Shown one piece after another: positions 5,531-61,400 of a DNA stretch of 64,000 bases. Position 1 is the stretch's first letter, and each line of letters starts with the position of its first letter. A program made the position numbers and the translations under genes. Source of the DNA: Hysterangium stoloniferum (lineage: Eukaryota; Basidiomycota; Agaricomycetes; Hysterangiales; Hysterangiaceae); NCBI GenBank assembly GCA_015178975.1, contig WHVD01000217.1, positions 1-64,000 on the forward strand, given 5' to 3'. The notes beneath the pieces were generated by a model. The model saw only the letters and a program-made list of their open reading frames with translations. It ran no database searches and was not told the DNA's origin.

Positions 5531-6560
5531 TTTCCATTCTCTAAACACTTTCTGTTCTTTACACAGTTTCCGTTCTTTACACAGTTTCCGTTCTTTACAC
5601 AGTTTCCATTCTTTACACAGTTTCCGTTCTTTACACAGTTTCCACAATTTTTGTTCTCTAAACACTTTCCCTTCTTTGCATGGTTTCCACAATTTCTGTC
5701 TCTGTTCTACAAATACTTTCCATTCTACAAACACTTTCCGTTCTACAAATACTTTCCATTCTACAAATACTTTCCTTTCTACAAACACTTTCCGTTCTAC
5801 AAATACTTTCCATTCTACAAATACTTTCCTTTCTACAAACACTTTCCGTTCTACAAATACTTTCCATTCTACAAATACTTTCCATTCTACAAACACTTTC
5901 CGTTCTACAAACACTTTCCATTCTACAAATACTTTCCATTCTACAAATACTTTCCATTCTACAAATACTTTCCGTTCTACAAACACTTTCCATTCTACAA
6001 ATACTTTCCATTCTACAAATACTTTCCATTCTACAAATACTTTCCTTTCTACAAACACTTTCCGTTCTACAAATACTTTCCATTCTACAAATACTTTCCA
6101 TTCTACAAACACTTTCCGTTCTACAAACACTTTCCATTCTACAAATACTTTCCATTCTACAAATACTTTCCATTCTACAAATACTTTCCGTTCTACAAAC
6201 ACTTTCCATTCTACAAATACTTTCCATTCTACAAATACTTTCCATTCTACAAATACTTTCCGTTCTACAAACACTTTCCATTCTACAAACACTTTCCGTT
6301 CTACAAACACTTTCCATTCTACAAACACTTTCCGTTCTACAAACACTTTCCGTTCTACAAACACTTTCCGTTCTACAAACACTTTCCGTTCTACAAACAC
6401 TTCTGTTCTACAAACACTTCTGTTCTACAAACATTTCCGTTCTCGGAACACTTTCCGTTCTCTGAACACTTTCCGTTCTCTGAACACTTTCCGTTCTCTG
6501 AACACTTTCCGTTCTCTGAACACTTTCCGTTCTCTGAACACTTTCCGTTCAAACAATAAG
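5530..6560. repeat. 18-bp ACTTTCCRTTCTACAAA minisatellite, round 2
   Basis: First TTTCCGTTCTTTACACAG units (5545-5645), then about 40 copies of TTCTACAAAYACTTTCCR (5700-6400), then six TTCCGTTCTCTGAACACT units (6430-6550). Variant units (ATT versus GTT, AAT versus CAC) recur in blocks of several units, the mark of unequal exchange of multi-unit segments. The ORFs of about 290-340 aa on both strands are simply the 18-bp period. Confidence 0.95.
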
Positions 6561-6564
6561 TCTC

Positions 6565-6835
6565 AGAAATACTTAAGAGTTGTCGACGCGGGGGGGTTTG
6601 GGGGGCGAAGCCCCCCAACAAGCTGGAGCCCGCAGCGAAGTTGTGGGGCCGGTCGCAAAGCGACCGCCCCGCAGCGTAGCAAGGGTTCCTAAGCTTGTAA
6701 ATCCTTAAAAGTTGTTGACATGGGGGGGTTTGGGCGGCGAAGCCCCCTAACAAGCTGGAGCCTGCAGCGAAGTTGTGGGGGGGTTCGTGACCACCCCGCA
6801 GTGTAGCAAGGGTTCCTAAGCTTGTCTAATAAGTT
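6565..6835. repeat. GC-rich mini-hairpin junction, copies 2 and 3
   Basis: Two further copies of the 2915-3055 block in tandem (6565-6700 and about 6705-6830), again with GGGGGCGAAGCCCCC, GCAGCGAAGTTGTGG and, in copy 2, GGTCGCAAAGCGACC. In GGTCRCRAAGYGACC both stem sides change together relative to copy 1 (GGTCACGAAGTGACC), a compensatory pattern. Confidence 0.85.
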
Positions 6836-13888: not shown

Positions 13889-15064
13889 ATGGCCACCCCT
13901 GCGACAGCCTCTGTGGATGAGCTTGCGCCCTCAATTACCGCACTTCACACCAATCTCACTTACTCTGGCCCTAAACTAGATAAACTTCAATCTAACTATC
14001 AAGCATGGCTTCGTGCCGCCACTCTATTCTTAACCTTAACTGGTTTCTACAGCTATGCCAAGGGCACAATCACTCAACCTGGTCCTGAGCACCCCCGGGC
14101 CCAAGCCAACTGGGACAGCAATAACTCTCTCACAGCTGCTCTCATTGCCTCCACCATCGAATCGACTGAATGGGAATATATTGACTTGGACCTTGGCGCA
14201 AAATCCTGCTGGGATACCCTTCTAACCCACCACAAAAGCGAGGGACCCATTCGTCAGGTTCAACTGCTCCAAACAGCCCTTCTCAGCCAATTCTCCCGTG
14301 GTACTCCATTGCCTACAACAGCCGAAGCAATCTGTGCCTCCGTTGACCGTGTGTACAACATGGGTGATATCTCATGGGACCTCTTCAAATGTATCGCCTT
14401 ACTCAACACCTTGGGCACTGATTTTCAACACCTGCATTCTATCATTACCCGTGACATATCCCAGTCCACTACAACAAAAACCTTCACTTCCGTACAACTC
14501 CGTTCTTACTTGGACAGTGAACAGGCATTGATGACCTCCGATACCACTAAGCATTCCACCACTGCTAACTCCATCGCTTTGACCGCATCCAAGTCTGACA
14601 GTCCACCTGTCTGCTCTAATTGTAAGAGACACCGCCACACTGTCAACTATTGTGTGGCACCTGGTGGTGGAATGGCTGGCAAAAGCATTGAGGAAACCAA
14701 ACTCGCCAGGCTCCGCGATCGTGGGGTTGCACAGTTAAAACCTTCCCCCTCCACTCCTAACCCCGTCCCCGTCTCAAAAATTCCTGTCCATGTGAAGGGC
14801 GCTGATGGTCACACATACATTGCACAAATGAATCCTTCCGACTTATCCATTTTGCATACTACTGCCCTGGATTTCGCTGGGATCATTGCCCCTCCATTGC
14901 ACACTATCCCCTTGCCCCCACTTACACTGGATACTGTTGAGTACGATGGCTGGATTGTCCTTGAGGAGGAGCTGCAAACTACCGTGGATTGGAACAAGCA
15001 CAGTCAACCATCTCCCACCATCCTGAGTGCCTCTACTGTCCAACCATTATCACAAACAAACTGA
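13889..15064 (+). CDS. copia element 1 Gag with CCHC zinc knuckle
   Basis: 391-codon reading frame starting with an ATG 73 bp after the 5' LTR. The N-terminal two thirds is a copia-type capsid domain. A zinc knuckle CSNCKRHRHTVNYC (C-x2-C-x4-H-x4-C) lies near residues 249-262, followed by a proline/serine-rich linker. The protein would form the virus-like particle and bind element RNA. The frame is closed by a TGA at 15062-15064, but the same frame carries on into the protease, so this stop probably arose by C-to-T change in a once continuous Gag-Pol ORF. Confidence 0.85.
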   Translation: MATPATASVDELAPSITALHTNLTYSGPKLDKLQSNYQAWLRAATLFLTLTGFYSYAKGTITQPGPEHPRAQANWDSNNSLTAALIASTIESTEWEYIDLDLGAKSCWDTLLTHHKSEGPIRQVQLLQTALLSQFSRGTPLPTTAEAICASVDRVYNMGDISWDLFKCIALLNTLGTDFQHLHSIITRDISQSTTTKTFTSVQLRSYLDSEQALMTSDTTKHSTTANSIALTASKSDSPPVCSNCKRHRHTVNYCVAPGGGMAGKSIEETKLARLRDRGVAQLKPSPSTPNPVPVSKIPVHVKGADGHTYIAQMNPSDLSILHTTALDFAGIIAPPLHTIPLPPLTLDTVEYDGWIVLEEELQTTVDWNKHSQPSPTILSASTVQPLSQTN

Positions 15065-18000
15065 ACTCCATTATCTACGGAGTCTCACCCCTTTTGGTTG
15101 GATAGCGGTGCAACTATACACATATCACCTGATCAAACTGACTTCATCACCTTAAGAGCCATCACCCCTCGTTCTGTAAGAGGTTTAGGAGGATCATCTA
15201 TATGGGCCATTGGAATAGGCGATATCAAAATATGTCTAGGCTGAGGATCCCACATCCTTCTTCGGGACGTGCTATACATCCCTGAAGCAGTCGTATGCCT
15301 AATCTCGGTTCGATGCCTAACTCGTGACTCCAATGTTATCGCACATTTCGATCATGACTCTTGTTGGCTCAGCACCAAGTCATCTAACTCCATAATTGCC
15401 CGTGGCTCCTTACTCCCACACAAAAACCTTTACTCATTGATGCTACAATCTGCACAAGTGGAACATGCTCTCATCACGCAAAATCTACCCACTCTCGAGA
15501 CTTGGCACTGCCGCCTTGGGCATGCTAACTACAAATCCATCACTGTCATGCTCAACAATGGCCTGATCAAAGGTGTGCGACCAGCCTCAACTACTGCCCC
15601 TCCCAAATGCGACTCATGTATCATTGGAAAACAGACGAAGTCTCCTGTTCCAAAAATACGTGAGGAGGGGTTAGGGCATAGGGGGACCAGGAAGCTTGAA
15701 AAAGTCTGGATAGATCTGTCTGGACCACACGCTGTAACATCACGAACTGGAAATAATTATATTATGAATATAGTTGATGATTTTACAAGCTATGTATGGA
15801 CCATCCCTTTGAAACACAAAAGCGACGCCTTCCCTAACCTTCAAACATGGGAATGGGCTCAGGAAGTTGCGACAGGTCTCAAGGTTGGGATATACCGCAC
15901 TGATAATGGAGAACTCAAGAGTCATTAAATGTCAAACTGGTTAGCATTAAGGGGAACAGAACAGCAGTTTACTGCACCCTATACATCGGCGCACATCGGG
16001 CGTGTTTGTCAGGAATCGGAAAACCCGCCAGCCTCCGGGCCCCCGGACCCCATCCTACATGCTCCCGACCCTCTATATTGTATAGTAACAACCGGAGTTC
16101 CCACGGGACCCTGTACATCAACTCGTTTATGCCTGACTCTCTGTACGCATCCCACCTGTCTGCACCTAACCCTCCATGTCTCATACACCAGTCCTCGGAC
16201 TCCACCGGACTCCAGACTCCACTCTATGTACACCCGACACTCTGTGTCTTATGTCCCAGTCACTGGACTCCGACCGGACTCCTGGAACCCCTCTAACAGA
16301 GCATAGAACCCCACTCCTGTTATCTGTCTCTGTGTCTCACACACCAGTCATCAGAAAACCCACTGGACTCCACCGGACCTCCTGCACATCAAGCCTATCT
16401 ATACCCGACACTATCCTGTGCACCAAGTCACCGGACTCCAACCGGACTTCTGGAACCCCTCTAACTGAGCCCCGCTCCAGTTATGGTTAAATGACCTGTC
16501 ATGATTCGTTCTCTGCTCCCGTTCCGTTCCGTCCCTATTCCCAGTTTAGTATTTACTTGTTTCATTTTATGTTTAATAGTTCTGCCTCTCATTAATACCG
16601 GATTTGGTATTATTACATTTCACAGTCTATATAAGTCTGCTATATTCATGTACTTAGAATCCAGTTTCAATCTCGAACTAGTTTTCCCCCGAACAAGTTT
16701 GATCCTTGAACAGTCCCTAGTCCTCTTGTCTGTCTGCACACTCGATTCCCGGAACTCCCACAGGAACTCCGGAATCTATACCTTCCTGTATGCATTCTGT
16801 CAGCTCGAAATATGGACACCCGAATGAGTGTACGAGGGCGCAGCCTATAAGCTGAAGCCAAGTCCATCTCAGTCGTTCACCATATCTTTCTGGTAATTAT
16901 TCTGATATCACTGTTCCTTGTACTAATAATCCCTGGAACTTTCCCAGGACCTATTGCCCGGGGACTCCGTGGGACTATTTCCTGGAAGCAAGTGTGTGTT
17001 CGGAATAGTTACCAGAAACCTCCGTGGGACTATCCGTGGAGCTTTGTTCAGGAACTTAACAGTGTTGAGCGAATGCATCGGACACTTATGGGGAAAGCAA
17101 GATCAATGCGTATCTATGCTAGTCTACCTGCTTACTTATGGGATGAATTATACCTCACTGCAGCCCATCTTCACGTGAAAACTACCACTACTACCCTTCA
17201 AAACAAGACCCCATGGGAACTTTGGTACGGACGTCCCCCTGACTACTCTTATATGAAAGAGATCGGATGTCGTGCTTTCGTCCTGATTCAAAACAAAACA
17301 AACCCAAAAATATTTGAATGCTCTATCGAATGCACACTAGTTGGGTATGATGCGAAATCAAAATCTTATCGATGTTATGATACAGTAACCCACCAAATCT
17401 ACAGTTCTTATCACGTTTGTTTCCTAGAAAGTCATGATGGCCACCCTAAATCACCTTCATCTAGGACTGACGCTCCCCTTACCACGTCTCCATTGCCACT
17501 ATCTTCTGGGTCCACTGCTGTCAGCTCTTCCATTGATGCCTATGATGAACCCCCACCACTCCCTATCATTTCGGAAGTGCCAGATGCATTACCTCCCCCC
17601 AATGAGCAACCTCTTCGCCGCTCCACTCATACAACGGCTGGTATTCCTCCAGGGTCCAATAGACTCCAACAATCCATTCAGGCATCGAAGGATAGTGCTG
17701 AATGCCTGCACTTTGAAAAATTAGCGTGTTCGCAAGCTATCATTAACTTGCCTGAACTATCCTCATCTCCTGACCTGGAGCAAATACAAGATGCTCTTTT
17801 GTCCCTAAACTCAGGATACAACTCCCCTAACTTCGATCTCGCTTTAGCAGCCATCTCTGATGGCATTGGGATCGATCCACTAACTTGCAATGATGCGCCT
17901 AAAACTTGGGAGGAGGCATTATGCTCAGGGGACGCAGAGCGGTGGTGGGCTGGTTTCCAAGATGAACTTGATTCCCTCAAAGCGATGGGAGTCTATAAAT

Positions 18001-19420
18001 TAGTCCCCAGGTCAGAAGTCCCTCAAGGGTGCAAATAAAAAGGGATGAACATGGCAATGCTGTCTGCTGGAAAGTCAGGCTTGTCTTTTAAGGGTTTCGA
18101 GCAAATATATGGAAAGGATTATCATCAAACTACCTCACCTACTGCATGCATGGAGTCCTGGCACATACTCCTCCACATCGCTGCCACTCTTGGATGGGAT
18201 GCCCAACAAATTGACATTAAGACTGCTTTCCTTTACAGTCTACTCCCCGATGACGAGATTCAGTTTATGGAACAACCTGAAGGTTTTTCTGTGCCTGGGA
18301 AACATGCTTATGTCTGGATGATCTTACGTGGTCTATATGGCATGAAGCAGAGTGGACATATCTGGAATCAAACTATGAATGAGCAAATGCTCACCTGGGG
18401 CTTTACTTGGCTTCCATGTGAACCTTGTCTCTATTATCGCCAAACGCCGACTGGCATTATTATTGTAGCCATCCATGTCGACGACTTCTTGTCCATTGCC
18501 AGCAACGCTGCTGAGAACAAATCTTTCAAGACTCAGATGCATGCCGTTTGGACTATCTCCGAGTTGGGTTCTGTCCGTTTTGTCGTTGGTATAGCTGTTG
18601 AATTAGACTGACACAACCATCTCGCCCTTCTTTCCCAATCAGCTCTGATCGACAAAATCATTTGCCAATTCAGTCAGACCCATGCTTCAATCGTCTCCAC
18701 CCTGATGGACCACAACCTCAAGCTTCGTCAGACCGATGGCACATCCCTCTCCCAACCTAGCTTGGACGCCATCCTTAAACTACCCTACCGGTCCCTTGTT
18801 GGCTGCTTACTCTACCTTGCCATTTCCACACACCCCGACATTTCATATGCCGTTCAACAGCTGTCTCAATACCTTGACAGCTACTCGATTCCCCACTGGA
18901 CTGCCGCCATTTGAGTTGTTCATTACTTAAAAGGCACTCGTGATCTCCGACTATGCCTCGGGGGGTCAAACACCCTTTCTTTGATTGGGTATACTGACTC
19001 TGATTGGGCCAATTGTTTGGATACCCGTCACAGCCTTCACCCTTGGCTCTGGTATTATTTCTTGGACATCAAAAAAGCAAAAAACTGTTGCTGCGTCATC
19101 ATGTGAAGCTGAATATGTAGCTGCCTTTGAGTCTGTCAAGGAAGGCACCTGGCTCCGTAGCCTTTTCTGCAGTATTTCCATGCTTCCCCCCTCCCAAACC
19201 ACCATATTCTGTGACAATAATGCTGCCACTGCCCTCTCCGAGGATCCCCTCCTTCACTCCCCATATTGACATTAAGTTCCATTTCCTCCGGGAACGTGTC
19301 CAGGCTGGGGATTTTTGTCTTCGCTACATCCCTACGAAGGAAAATTTAGCTGATATCTTCACAAAGGCATTAGAACCGTCTCAGTTTATCAAACTACGAG
19401 GTTTTCTGGGTCTCAAGTAG
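15065..19420 (+). pseudogene. copia element 1 Pol (PR-IN-RT-RH), broken
   Basis: Protease motif DSGA at 15101-15112. Integrase zinc-binding residues are seen at about 15504-15620 (WHCRLGH ... CDSC) and the catalytic core in WIDLSGP and YRTDNGE. The core is split at 16006 by a nested LTR and resumes at 17062 with ERMHRTLMGKARS. Reverse transcriptase spans about 17890-18610 with IHVDDFLSIAS at 18468-18500. RNase H follows (VAASSCEAEYVA at about 19090, ENLADIFTKAL at about 19340). Breaks: TGA at 15242, TAA at 15926, a one-base shift near 18035, TGA near 18609 and 18912, and a shift near 19265. Comparison with copia element 2 suggests most stops derive from CGA or CAA codons. Confidence 0.9.
16007..17061 (+). 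mobile_element. Nested solo LTR inside copia 1 integrase
   Basis: 1,055-bp insertion starting TGTCAGG and ending CTTAACA, flanked by GTGTT on both sides (16002-16006 and 17062-17066). It interrupts the integrase between HIGRV and ERMH. It contains the conserved promoter-like word GCAGCCTATAAGCTGAAGCC at about 16839-16858, shared by the gypsy-type LTRs in this window. ORFs in it are non-coding artefacts. Confidence 0.9.
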
Positions 19421-46586: not shown

Positions 46587-46999
46587 ATGGGTCCCAAGCC
46601 AATGCTGTGCAAACCAGTACCAGCTGCTGGGCCCTCCACGGGCACTCCAAATCGGGCACCACTCACCACTGCCCAAATCTTGGTGCAGTGGGAGGAACAA
46701 TGCCGTCAACGAGAGGAGGTGGAGAGGGAGGCCAAGGAGGCTGAGGAGCAGCTGGACAGAGAGTACCAGGTGGCACTGGCTGCAGAGGAAGAGGCTGAGA
46801 GGCAGAGGAAAAGGGATGAGGAGGAGGCTGTGTGGGTTGCCATGGAGAAAGCCAAGGCAGCTGCAGACAGGGCCATGGTTGCCATGGGAAAAGTAAGTCC
46901 CATTGATCCACCATGTTGACTTGACTGACTTGGCATTTTCAGTGCAAAGTGGCAGAGGTCGAGTCTGAGTCTGAGGGGGAGCCAGAGAGCCCCCAAAAG
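46587..46999 (+). pseudogene. Fragment of a spliced gene with a charged coiled-coil region
   Basis: Exon 46587-46892 and exon 46943-46999 are joined by a GTAAGT...TTTCAG intron of 50 nt, and a second GTAAGT donor follows at 47000. The 121 codons start with a proline/serine-rich segment, then a Glu/Gln/Arg/Ala-rich helix (QWEEQCRQREEVEREAKEAE) that is probably a coiled coil, then an acidic tail. The next exon is missing: gypsy integrase sequence on the other strand begins at about 47060. The family is not recognised. The kept splice signals suggest a host or element gene fragment caught between the LTR and the integrase. Confidence 0.6.
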
Positions 47000-47059
47000 G
47001 TAAGTCTCGGGTCCATGGATATTCCAGGAAACTAACCACCAAACAAGAAGGCAAAGAAA

Positions 47060-47670
47060 ATGGCTCCAGTCCACCTTTGAAGTTATGTGGGATGGAACTC
47101 CATGCTTGGAAAATACATTGATAATAAAACGTTCCACTAACTGCATGGACATAATGGTATCATGTGTAGGAATGAATATACCTTGTTTTGAGAATCTGTT
47201 AACAACAACTAGAATGGCAGAAAGGCCTTCAGAGTCCGGTAGGTGTTCAATGAAATCCATAGAGATGGAATTCCATGGGTATTCCGGTACCAGGAGTTGT
47301 TTCAAAAGGCCGTATGGCTTGTGTCGCTGTGATTTAGAGTGTGGACAAGTAGTGCAAGATTTACAATAGTGCTTAATGAATCCTCGGAGTCCGGGCCAAG
47401 TATATTCTCTTCTTATTAATGATAGAGTTTTGTTGAACCTGAAATTTCCCGAGAGTGGATGGTCATGTTTGTACTGAAGGATCCTGAGGCAGAGGCCATT
47501 GGAGTCCAGTACATATATACAATTGTCAAGTCTAATGAAACCATGCTGGTCAAGAGACCACCAGGGTTGACTGGGGTCCCAACCTGTGCAGAGTCTGTGG
47601 GGTTGCTTACTCTTTTTGAGTCGGAAGCCAGTTTGTCCTTTGACGGGGATTCCATGGAGGAAGTCTTGGC
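47060..47670 (-). pseudogene. Ty3/gypsy element 1 integrase, truncated
   Basis: Minus-strand frame with the HHCC zinc-binding region (HDHPLSGNFRFNKTLSLIRR ... CKSCTTC) and the start of the catalytic core (SISMDFIEHLPDSEGLSAIL, then FSKHGVPSHITS). It stops just before the second catalytic aspartate and the glutamate, so no active enzyme is possible. Upstream it joins the Gag knuckle region with no protease, RT or RNase H, so about 2 kb or more of pol has been deleted. Confidence 0.85.
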
Positions 47671-47857
47671 TGTTCAACCTTTTGCAGAGTTTGCTTTTGC
47701 CAGCGGACATTCTGGAACTCGATGACCAGGTTTTCTGCACAAGAGACAAAGGTTATTGTCCATACAATGTTGTCTTTCTTGTAGGGTCAATTTGCCATTG
47801 GGTCCAAGCTTGCCTGTGAGGTCGGGTTTTCCGGTTTGCTTGCTGGACTGTTCATCT

Positions 47858-59600: not shown

Positions 59601-60545
59601 ATTTAAGTCAAAACACGAGTTTTAATGTGATCGGGGTTACTCCTTCTGGAATTGGTATGGTTTCACACACATTATTTGAGTTTAGAGACAAGAGTTCTTC
59701 TTCTAAAGCAGATTTCCAGCAATCAGCATCTGGGCATGCCACCTTTAATGTGCTTGGTAGGCCATCATTTGATAAGTTGGAATTTGGAATTCCTGCGAAA
59801 AAAAATTCATTGTCCAGCACTTCTCCTCTGAGGAAATCTGCATTTGGAGGGATGTGATTATCCTGGTTTCCAGGTGCCTGAGCTTTTTGTGTGGCTTCTT
59901 CATCAAGTGTACATCGATACTCTCGATTTATATCCGCTGGTTTTCTTTGTCGCCCACTCCATTGAACTTCTTGTATGAAGGGTACTGGTTGAAGAGGTGG
60001 TGAGGCAGTCTGTTGTCTAAGAGCTTCTTCCAGGGCTGGAGGTTCCTGAATGGGGAGTGGCAGGTCTGATGTTTCAGAATGCTGCAGTTCTGGTGCTTGT
60101 TCTCCCACTGGTTCTGGAATGGGTTTCACCACCTGTTCAGCCTCATCCTCTTCACTTTCAGGGGTGTTTCTTGGCTGCATAACAGCCTCCCTAGTGAAGC
60201 CCTCCCACTGAGCCCTGACTGTGTTGGAACCCCAAGGTATGACATCAGATTCTGAGAAGGTCCCATTTTCATCAAATCTGACATGTCTGCTAGAGAATAT
60301 TTTCATTGTTTACCAAGCATAATACATTTTCTTGTATGTGATTGGAATTTCCCTCCATGTTGATCCTTCAGGATATAAGCAGATGCTGGACATCTGAATG
60401 GTTGAAAAAATGCAGCATCCACTCTTCGATTAAAGCATGTTTCATATGGAGTGTAATCTCCAAGTGCAGACACTGGACTCTGACCCATGACATAGGCTGC
60501 AGTGATCATGGAATCAGCCCAGAAGTATTTGGAAAGTTTTGACTC

Positions 60546-60797
60546 TGTTAAAGGTATAGAAAAAAATTGACCCAGCCTGGGATTGAACCAAGGGCCTTTA
60601 GCAATATATAAACAGTGCTCTAACCACTGAGCTACTGGACCTATTGGTCTAGTGTGATATAATGGATTATATATACATATTCTATAGGTCCTTCTGATGC
60701 CACACTGGGACTCATACAGTCACATCTGGACTGATGCCTACTTGGGACTTATAACAGCTTGAACATTCTAATAGATATTGTATTTCCAAATCTAACA
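60546..60797 (-). mobile_element. 252-bp LTR-like element carrying a tRNA-like sequence
   Basis: Starts TGTTA and ends TAACA, flanked by a perfect 5-bp duplication GACTC (60541-60545 and 60798-60802), inside the integrase of copia element 3. On the minus strand it reads as a ~150-bp AT-rich leader with TATATATAATCC, then a 73-nt tRNA-like segment, then a T7 run, and ends. No internal protein-coding region. Either a solo LTR of an unknown family or a very small TRIM-type element. Confidence 0.8.
60569..60641 (-). other. tRNA-like sequence (pol III boxes, degenerate anticodon arm)
   Basis: Minus strand. Acceptor GGTCCAG pairs with CTGGGTC (two G-T wobbles). D arm GCTC-AGTGGTTA-GAGC is perfect. 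T arm CTTGG-TTCAATC-CCAGG is fully paired. A box TAGCTCAGTGGTTAGAGC and B box GGTTCAATCC are near consensus, and a T7 terminator follows directly. The anticodon stem does not pair and position 33 is not T, so it is not a functional tRNA gene. Confidence 0.75.
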
Positions 60798-61400
60798 GAC
60801 TCCTCCACCGATGGTGTTCACAAGTGTTGATAAGGTTTGGTTCATTCTTTCTCCAAGTCCATTTTGTTCCGGGGTGTCAGGGCTAGACTTTTCATGAAAA
60901 ATGCCATCCACTCAAAGTTTATCTTCAAATGCTTTGCTTGTATACTCACCTCCATTGTCACTTCTAAAATCACTGGTACAAAGTGGTGTGAAGATTTCAC
61001 TTTCAATTTCCATCCAAAGGAAGGTCTGAATGTCTGTTTTCCACTGATGGTAGACTTGGAGGCTGTCACTTTTCTGCTTCATAAAATATATCCATGGAAA
61101 ATGGGTGAAATCATCCACTATTAACACCCAGTATTTGAAACCTTCATGGGAGGATGGTGTAATTGGACCTCCAACATCAGAATGGACAATCTGCAGTGGT
61201 TTTGGTGAGAGCATCAATACCCTGGAGCTGACCTTGATTACCATATGTCTTAAGTGATTGGTTGGGATGTGATGTTTACAGCATTTGTCATCATCTGACT
61301 TCATGGTCCTGGCTTTCAAAGCAGTTTCAGAACAGCCTGTGGAGCAGAGCTGTGAATACTCTGACATGACTCAGAGCTTCACAGCATCAAATGTAAGCTT

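What the first reader, a model, noticed from the sequence alone, without database searches (positions are those of the whole stretch)
60546..60797. Tiny LTR-like element with a tRNA-like cargo: a possible fungal counterpart of Cassandra
Seen: 252 bp, TGTTA...TAACA termini, perfect 5-bp target duplication, and inside it a 73-nt tRNA-like fold with near-consensus A and B boxes and a T7 terminator. Known: 5-bp duplications with TG...CA ends mark LTR-retrotransposon integration; plant Cassandra TRIMs carry 5S rRNA sequences in their LTRs. Inference: this is an LTR or TRIM that captured a tRNA and could be transcribed by pol III. SINEs normally give variable-length duplications and A-rich tails, which are absent here.
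Basis: partly seen in the sequence, partly recalled or inferred. Interest (0 to 1): 0.85.

Follow-up and report, generated by a model that had tools for sequence, protein, structure and literature searches.

The report
Helenus solo LTR, Copia-swapped relatives
The 252-base element is a leftover end of a very small retrotransposon that carries a tRNA-like promoter, a kind already named Helenus in 2024, and its relatives in the same genome point to the larger retrotransposon that copied it, because the two have swapped ends during copying.

Summary
Window 60546-60797 is a solo LTR (sense strand minus) with a GACTC target duplication and a 74-nt tRNA-like sequence (Rfam tRNA, 40.7 bits). The same unnamed 111-Mb genome holds many relatives: 34 of 37 intact-ended solo LTRs have 5-bp duplications, and 16 of 30 internal regions examined sit in complete TRIMs of about 566-580 bp with duplications, 7 of them with identical LTRs. 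The 66-bp internal part has a PBS complementary to the anticodon arm of a tRNA-Met of this genome and a polypurine tract. This is Helenus (Kojima 2024), the tRNA counterpart of Cassandra, so the kind is known.

The new part is evidence of the helper. An intact 5.1-kb Copia shares the PBS. At least 10 of 74 Helenus internal regions are preceded by the Copia LTR, and 6 Helenus LTRs are followed by Copia internal sequence. Simple hybrids keep one 5-bp duplication in 6 of 7 cases. The opposite junction (polypurine tract to foreign LTR) was not found. This fits plus-strand transfer between two cDNAs at the shared PBS, hence co-packaging. Pol III transcription is likely but not shown; the T7 terminator is private to this copy (family: T4).

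The parts
60546..60797 (-). Helenus solo LTR, group A; sense strand is minus (TGTTAGATTTGG...CCTTTAACA)
   Evidence: orientation from PBS and PPT of complete relatives
60541..60545 (.). target site duplication GACTC, low-coordinate copy
   Evidence: probable empty site in the C110 relative
60798..60802 (.). target site duplication GACTC, high-coordinate copy
60568..60641 (-). tRNA-like sequence (74 nt), disturbed anticodon loop
   Evidence: ARAGORN; Rfam RF00005 40.7 bits
60624..60634 (-). A box TAGCTCAGTGG
   Evidence: read; no fixed difference between groups A and C
60580..60589 (-). B box GGTTCAATCC
   Evidence: read; no fixed difference between groups A and C
60560..60566 (-). T7 run after the tRNA-like part, private to this copy (family: TTCTTTTCT)
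60667..60675 (-). TATATATAA, in the longest conserved stretch upstream of the tRNA-like part (33 bases upstream in the reference copy of group C)
60912..61370 (-). flanking host sequence of the insertion: stop-to-stop frame with a retroelement integrase (rve) match, not part of the LTR

Best explanation
The window feature is a solo LTR of a Helenus-type TRIM: a ~570-bp non-coding element LTR(about 250-257)-PBS-66-bp internal-PPT-LTR whose LTR carries a tRNA-derived sequence. Shown: family structure, 5-bp target duplications, PBS complementary to the anticodon arm of a host tRNA-Met, conservation of the tRNA arms and boxes but not the anticodon arm, and PBS-junction hybrids with an intact Copia. 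Inferred: (1) RNA starts near the tRNA-like 5' end from the TATA at -33 and boxes A/B, most likely by pol III, leaks through the weak T4 signal of the 5' LTR and ends at the same signal in the 3' LTR, so the tRNA-like part is about the R region; (2) this RNA is packaged in particles of the Copia with the 348-bp LTR ('LTRx'), primed by a 5' fragment of tRNA-iMet; (3) plus-strand strong-stop DNA (LTR+PBS) is sometimes transferred to the minus strand of another molecule at the shared PBS, giving hybrids and, when repeated, (LTR-internal)n arrays; (4) LTR-LTR recombination later leaves solo LTRs like this one.
For: Complete elements with TSD: 16 of 30 internal regions given to (15 flagged; L038 CAACA read by eye), LTR pairs 97.6-100% identical, 7 of 16 at 100%. 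Solo LTRs: 34 of 37 with TSD. PBS GGTTATGGGCCCCG is the reverse complement of 14 nt of the genome's tRNA-Met. PPT TTTCAGGGGAAG abuts the 3' LTR. Copia L093: intact 1377-aa ORF; gag, Pol_BBD, gag_pre-integrs, rve (32.1 bits, cut-off 32.6), SH3 and RVT_2 found in separate pieces; TSD CTGTA; same PBS. Junctions: LTRx to Helenus internal 7 of 55 matches plus 3 in composites, all 10 among the 74 PPT-LTR_C junctions; LTR_C to Copia internal 6 of 26 matches; PPT to foreign LTR 0 in both directions at up to 3 mismatches. TSD in 6 of 7 simple hybrids. Fixed differences between groups A and C: 43/154 upstream, 5/75 in the tRNA-like part, all in the anticodon/variable region; Fisher p 1.2e-4.
Against: No transcript data. 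A pol III genomic RNA must read through the T4 signal in the 5' LTR; that T4 is leaky in fungi is recalled, not tested. The acceptor stem and the tail are as conserved as the boxes, so promoter function is not the only reading. TATA at -33 also fits pol II. Of 6 reciprocal junctions only 3 have a matching duplication, two of these of simple sequence (AGAGA, TTTTT); 2 (C14, C256) have none and 1 (C35:1081401) has no 3' end found; hybrid L088 has none. Identical LTR pairs show recent, not present, activity. That LTRx is the helper rather than a fellow passenger is inferred from its intact ORF. The 5' side of all 74 internal regions was not read, and Copia's own PPT-LTRx junctions were not counted as a denominator.
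Confidence: 0.88

Rival explanations
1. Same element, but transcribed by pol II from the U3 TATA; the tRNA-like part is a relic of a SINE/tRNA insertion kept because it lies in R-U5, needed for strand transfer, packaging or integration.
For: TATATATAA at -33 of the tRNA-like part lies in the longest conserved upstream run, 19 bp. Conservation covers acceptor stem and tail as well as boxes A and B. A T4 run lies downstream of the boxes inside the 5' LTR.
Against: Within the tRNA-like part the anticodon/variable region changed (5 fixed differences in 23 positions) while both boxes had none, the pattern of an internal promoter. Kojima 2024 reports box conservation in Helenus families.
Confidence: 0.3
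2. The tRNA-like fold works as a processing or packaging signal (RNase P/Z cut sites at RNA ends), not as a promoter.
For: Acceptor stem and T arm have no fixed difference between groups A and C; Rfam hits at 33.9-48.6 bits in 9 of the 12 Helenus loci given.
Against: 3 of those 12 loci (L058, L061, L066) gave no hit at the gathering score, and ARAGORN called a tRNA in 5 of 9 Helenus loci, so the fold is not always kept. No direct evidence.
Confidence: 0.12
3. Hybrids and arrays arose by recombination of integrated copies rather than during reverse transcription.
For: Pure arrays (L072, L107) could form by unequal exchange or by a circular copy recombining into a resident LTR; both keep the outer TSD.
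Against: By reading, LTRx and the Helenus LTR share only about 21 bp at the junction; ectopic exchange would not leave one TSD around hybrids, yet 6 of 7 have one. L107 mixes internal regions 98.5% and 89.6% identical to the reference.
Confidence: 0.07
4. SINE or ordinary tRNA gene.
For: Boxes A and B; ARAGORN calls some copies tRNA.
Against: LTR pairs, PBS, PPT and constant 5-bp TSDs; odd anticodon loops (Tyr-ata, Ile-tat, undefined).
Confidence: 0.01

Closest known systems
Helenus (Kojima 2024, PMC10886601), fungal type
   Different: Helper evidence there is shared PBS and one Copia-9_PGr/LTR-1_PTrit internal similarity across two species. Here an intact Copia in the same genome is joined to Helenus at PBS junctions, with a single duplication around most simple hybrids.
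Cassandra (Kalendar 2008 recalled; Kalendar 2020, PMC7215508, passages)
   Same: TRIM with a pol III-type small-RNA sequence in its LTR; tandem arrays
   Different: 5S rRNA, in plants; autonomous partners called unknown in the 2020 passages
Template-switching complexes in Triticeae, rice and maize (Sabot & Schulman 2007, PMC1950507, abstract and passages)
   Same: Multi-LTR insertions with one flanking 5-bp duplication, ascribed to reverse transcription
   Different: There 4 cases in the passages seen, with closely similar outer LTRs; here two unrelated LTRs joined at the PBS, in both directions, between a TRIM and a coding Copia
LTR swapping in soybean (Du 2010; not held, title seen in a reference list only)
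   Same: By its title, exchange of LTRs between autonomous and non-autonomous partners
   Different: Not compared; paper not read
Drosophila Copia and yeast Ty5 priming (as stated in PMC10886601)
   Same: Priming at the anticodon region of a tRNA
   Different: Those are coding elements

Membership tests
Helenus (Kojima 2024) | Two LTRs around a short non-coding internal part; screened there at under 1000 bp | tested here: met
   Complete relatives about 566-580 bp, 66-bp internal; the window copy itself is a solo LTR
Helenus (Kojima 2024) | tRNA-derived sequence in the LTR with TRGCY/YGG (box A) and GGTTC (box B) | tested here: met
   TAGCTCAGTGG and GGTTCAATCC; Rfam RF00005
Helenus (Kojima 2024) | PBS and PPT between the LTRs; fungal PBS mostly against the anticodon loop of a tRNA, iMet dominant | tested here: met
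   GGTTATGGGCCCCG against the genome's own tRNA-Met (ARAGORN anticodon cat; 'initiator' from recalled hallmarks); PPT TTTCAGGGGAAG
Helenus (Kojima 2024) | 5-bp target site duplication (fungal and plant type) | tested here: met
   34 of 37 solo LTRs; 16 of 30 internal regions in complete elements with TSD
Helenus (Kojima 2024) | tRNA-like part in most families not a functional tRNA | tested here: inconclusive
   Odd or undefined anticodons in ARAGORN; tRNAscan-SE isotype test not available
Helenus (Kojima 2024) | Host among listed groups (Pucciniales, some Agaricomycetes, animals, Selaginella) | not testable with these tools
   Genome unnamed
Helenus (Kojima 2024) | Pol III transcription (expected, not validated by its author either) | not testable with these tools
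   No RNA data
Cassandra | 5S rRNA sequence in the LTR | tested here: not met
   Rfam at gathering score on the window finds one match, tRNA
tRNA-derived SINE | No LTRs, A-rich tail, variable-length duplications | tested here: not met
   LTR pairs, PBS, PPT, constant 5-bp duplications

The most novel reading that the evidence does not exclude
In this Copia/Helenus system second-strand (plus-strand) transfer is regularly intermolecular. Any LTR can be joined to any internal module at the shared half-tRNA PBS, while the PPT-LTR link stays cognate. PBS identity alone, without LTR similarity, would then be what binds a pol III-driven TRIM to its helper, and the same slip would build TRIM tandem arrays.
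Probability: 0.6. Interest if true: 0.6.

Novelty: new member of a known kind. Interest (0 to 1): 0.45.

Why it matters
[quoted passage not shown] Hybrid insertions that share one target duplication record that two elements met during one reverse transcription, so helpers can be identified from genome sequence alone. The same junction test can be run on Cassandra, other Helenus families and other TRIMs. Such elements also yield spurious tRNA predictions.

Tried and rejected
SINE and functional tRNA gene: rejected on LTR/PBS/PPT/TSD anatomy and odd anticodons. Cassandra itself: no 5S match in the window. T7 terminator as a family feature: rejected (1 of 113). Genomic recombination as source of hybrids: rejected for simple hybrids on TSDs, left open for pure arrays. 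LTRy element of L089 (LTRy-PBS-Helenus internal-LTR_A-PBS-3.2 kb-LTRy, TSD GAATA): three ORFs scanned, no Pfam match, so not shown to be autonomous. L012/L060 (another LTR before a Helenus A internal): TSD not established. C35:1081401: 3' end not found in L110. L104 (C256) held none of the searched parts. Host identity: not resolved. Paper search found 0 papers and 56 one unrelated; 51, 52, 77 and 78 gave background only.

Full report
What is there. Window 60546-60797 begins and ends with the inverted termini TGTTA/TAACA and is flanked by GACTC on both sides. ARAGORN and Rfam both mark a tRNA-like sequence on the minus strand at 60641-60568. The flank looks like a decayed retroelement pol region: an integrase (rve) match at 60912-61370 minus, and a weak SH3 match (25.4 bits, cut-off 27) in a frame that overlaps the LTR. 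A relative of the flank on C110, about 69% identical, reads GACTCCTCCA without interruption, which suggests an empty site with GACTC once; it diverges after CTCCA and has an unidentified stretch of its own further on, so this is modest evidence.

Family. The 252 bases match 45 listed places in the genome, with only 40 of 312 candidates scored. 38 of the 45, the window copy included, span the whole query; the full-length others are 91-96% identical; 42 of 45 span the tRNA-like part. Three related LTR groups were seen: A (TGTTAGATTTGG, the window copy), B (TGTTAGAATTGG) and C (TGTTAGAAATGGG). One search took 113 LTR instances from the fetched loci (A 50, B 2, C 61; overlapping loci left out; several instances are the two LTRs of one element). 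44 of them have no internal region on either side; 7 of these were dropped for altered ends, and 34 of the remaining 37 have a 5-bp duplication (L011, L014 and L027 do not). Pairing flanks of different copies gives 2 of 1332; L020 and L033 share one duplicated locus. Of 30 internal regions examined, 16 lie in a complete LTR-internal-LTR element with a 5-bp duplication (15 flagged by the script, L038 read by eye). Seven of the 16 have identical LTRs; the lowest is 97.6%. The other 14 are hybrids or composites (L012, L024, L069, L073, L082, L086, L088), one truncated copy (L039), one array (L072, which has its own duplication), and five without a matching duplication around the pair (L070 second, L075 first, L076, L081, L084 first).

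Anatomy. The sense strand is the minus strand of the window. The internal part is 66 bp: GGTTATGGGCCCCG at its start and TTTCAGGGGAAG at its end. Two tRNA-Met genes of this genome (L113, L114; ARAGORN anticodon cat; Rfam 58.9 bits) give GGTTATGGGCCCCG as the exact reverse complement of anticodon stem and loop; that they are the initiator type rests on recalled hallmarks. This is the copia-type primer: an internal stretch of tRNA, not its 3' end.

What the tRNA-like part does. Between groups A and C, columns with different majority letters number 43 of 154 upstream of the tRNA-like part and 5 of 75 inside it; all 5 lie in the anticodon/variable region (23 positions), none in box A, box B or the acceptor stem (Fisher p 1.2e-4 for tRNA-like part against upstream). 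Copies are related, so p is indicative. The longest upstream run without such a difference, 19 bp, holds TATATATAA 33 bases before the tRNA-like part. After it comes TTCTTTTCT: the longest T run in the last 32 bases is 4 in 100 of 113 LTRs, 2 or 3 in 11, 6 in one, and 7 only in the window copy. My inference is a pol III transcript of about 400 nt starting at the tRNA-like part of the 5' LTR and ending at the T run of the 3' LTR, with the tRNA-like part as R. It requires leaky reading of T4 in the 5' LTR; that T4 is weak in yeasts, and that fission yeast tRNA genes use an upstream TATA, is recalled. The promoter reading is not proven, because acceptor stem and tail are conserved too, and Rfam found no tRNA at the gathering score in 3 of 12 Helenus loci.

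Helper. The 5' neighbour of some group C internal regions is a different 348-bp LTR, LTRx. By my reading, six pairs of LTRx lie 4,800-4,819 bp apart. One such element, L093, has TSD CTGTA, the same PBS and an uninterrupted 1377-aa ORF; pieces scanned apart match copia-type gag, Pol_BBD, gag_pre-integrs, rve (32.1 bits, cut-off 32.6), SH3 and RVT_2; the last piece matched nothing. It is a plausible autonomous Copia. Other copies were not read.

Hybrids. Pattern search for LTRx joined to the Helenus C internal start gave 55 matches: 7 hybrids, 46 with the Copia internal start and 2 one-letter variants counted as Copia. Six of the 7 have a 5-bp duplication around the whole hybrid: L069 GATTT, L073 GGTTG (LTRx shortened to about 47 bp), L082 TTACA, L086 CCTGG, L105 ACGCG, L106 ATCCA; L088 has none (for L105 and L106 the flank was read one base outward, because the LTRx query began one base inside the LTR). 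The reciprocal junction, Helenus LTR to Copia internal start, occurs in 6 of 26 matches, the other 20 being Helenus-type: C35:906606 ends in LTRx with AGAGA (in a GA run); C2 is LTR_C-Copia-LTRx-internal-LTR_C with TTTTT (simple sequence); C259 is LTRx-internal-LTR_C-Copia-LTRx with ATCAC; C14 and C256 have no duplication; C35:1081401 has no 3' end found. Only the ends of these long elements were read. Counting the composites, at least 10 of the 74 Helenus internal regions that end in PPT-LTR_C are preceded by LTRx; the 5' side of all 74 was not read. At the other end, PPT joined to the foreign LTR, there were 0 matches at up to 3 mismatches in either direction.

Reading of the hybrids. In LTR-element replication both LTRs normally come from one round of copying. 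Two unrelated LTRs joined exactly at the PBS, with everything downstream from the other element, is what arises if plus-strand strong-stop DNA (LTR plus PBS) is transferred to the minus strand of another molecule. First-strand transfer needs shared R sequence, which these LTRs seem to lack, so hybrids are not expected at the PPT side. Ectopic recombination of integrated copies would not leave one duplication around the hybrid. Repeating the transfer adds LTR-internal units and would give the arrays: L072 has 5 LTRs with TSD TCTAG; L107 has 4 LTRs with TSD GGTTG and alternating internal types, 98.5% and 89.6% identical to the reference. By my reading of the list, 11 neighbouring PPT-LTR junctions lie 317-319 bp apart. 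Pure arrays could also form by recombination. Group A has a similar composite with another LTR pair (L089, TSD GAATA).

Comparison with print. Kojima 2024 (PMC10886601; parts 1-4 of 6, the figure legends and tables, and passages seen; supplements not) describes Helenus: TRIMs with a tRNA-derived sequence in the LTR, 113 families in rust fungi, 5-bp duplications in fungi, mostly iMet anticodon-loop PBS, and mobilisation by Copia inferred from PBS and from one internal similarity across species. The four structural features tested here were met; the functional-tRNA test was inconclusive; host and transcription could not be tested. That paper has 0 occurrences of 'template switch' and 2 of 'tandem', one in its reference list. 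A search for Helenus with retrotransposon and tRNA returned that paper only, and searches showed no report of Helenus-Copia hybrids in the titles and abstract openings listed; most subscription journals are not held. Sabot and Schulman 2007 (PMC1950507; abstract and passages) reported multi-LTR complexes with flanking duplications and proposed template switching, so the mechanism class is known. Kalendar 2020 (PMC7215508; passages) discusses tandem Cassandra arrays. The einkorn Cereba/Quinta paper (PMC11302176) and the Onsen paper (PMC5668417) were seen as passages only and concern other element pairs. That retroviral plus-strand transfer is mostly intramolecular is recalled.

Verdict. The finding is real and correctly interpreted in outline, but the kind of element is known. 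The added result, which merits the moderate score, is in-genome evidence that points to the helper and shows where the two elements exchange ends.

Noticed in passing
L020 and L033: Two group A solo LTRs have identical flanks on contigs C46 and C290, so that locus was probably itself duplicated after the insertion.
   Followed up: no
C543:266621, 272035 and 277449 (L075, L076): Helenus C internal regions 5,414 bp apart, with LTRx at the same spacing; 3,898 bp compared between the first two are 99.97% identical, so a block seems repeated in tandem.
   Followed up: partly
L084, around 1747-2316: A Helenus copy with TSD AGAGC appears inserted inside the tRNA-like part of another Helenus LTR.
   Followed up: partly
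window 13889-18038 plus strand: Three separate ORFs with Copia-type matches (gag, gag_pre-integrs, SH3), apart from the finding.
   Followed up: no
window 46706-47749 minus strand: ORF with an Integrase_H2C2 match, another retroelement remnant.
   Followed up: no
window 5676-6692 plus strand: ORF matching the Plasmodium histidine-rich protein family, probably only low-complexity sequence; long ORFs overlap on both strands here.
   Followed up: no
L115, L116 (C1:2552296, C545:192724; same pattern match at C36 and C209): A repeated sequence containing GGGGCCCATAACC that ARAGORN does not call a tRNA.
   Followed up: no
L117 (C110:45700-46720): The relative of the window's flank carries an unidentified stretch of roughly 560 bp just downstream of the site, without a clear match to the LTRs compared.
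   Followed up: partly
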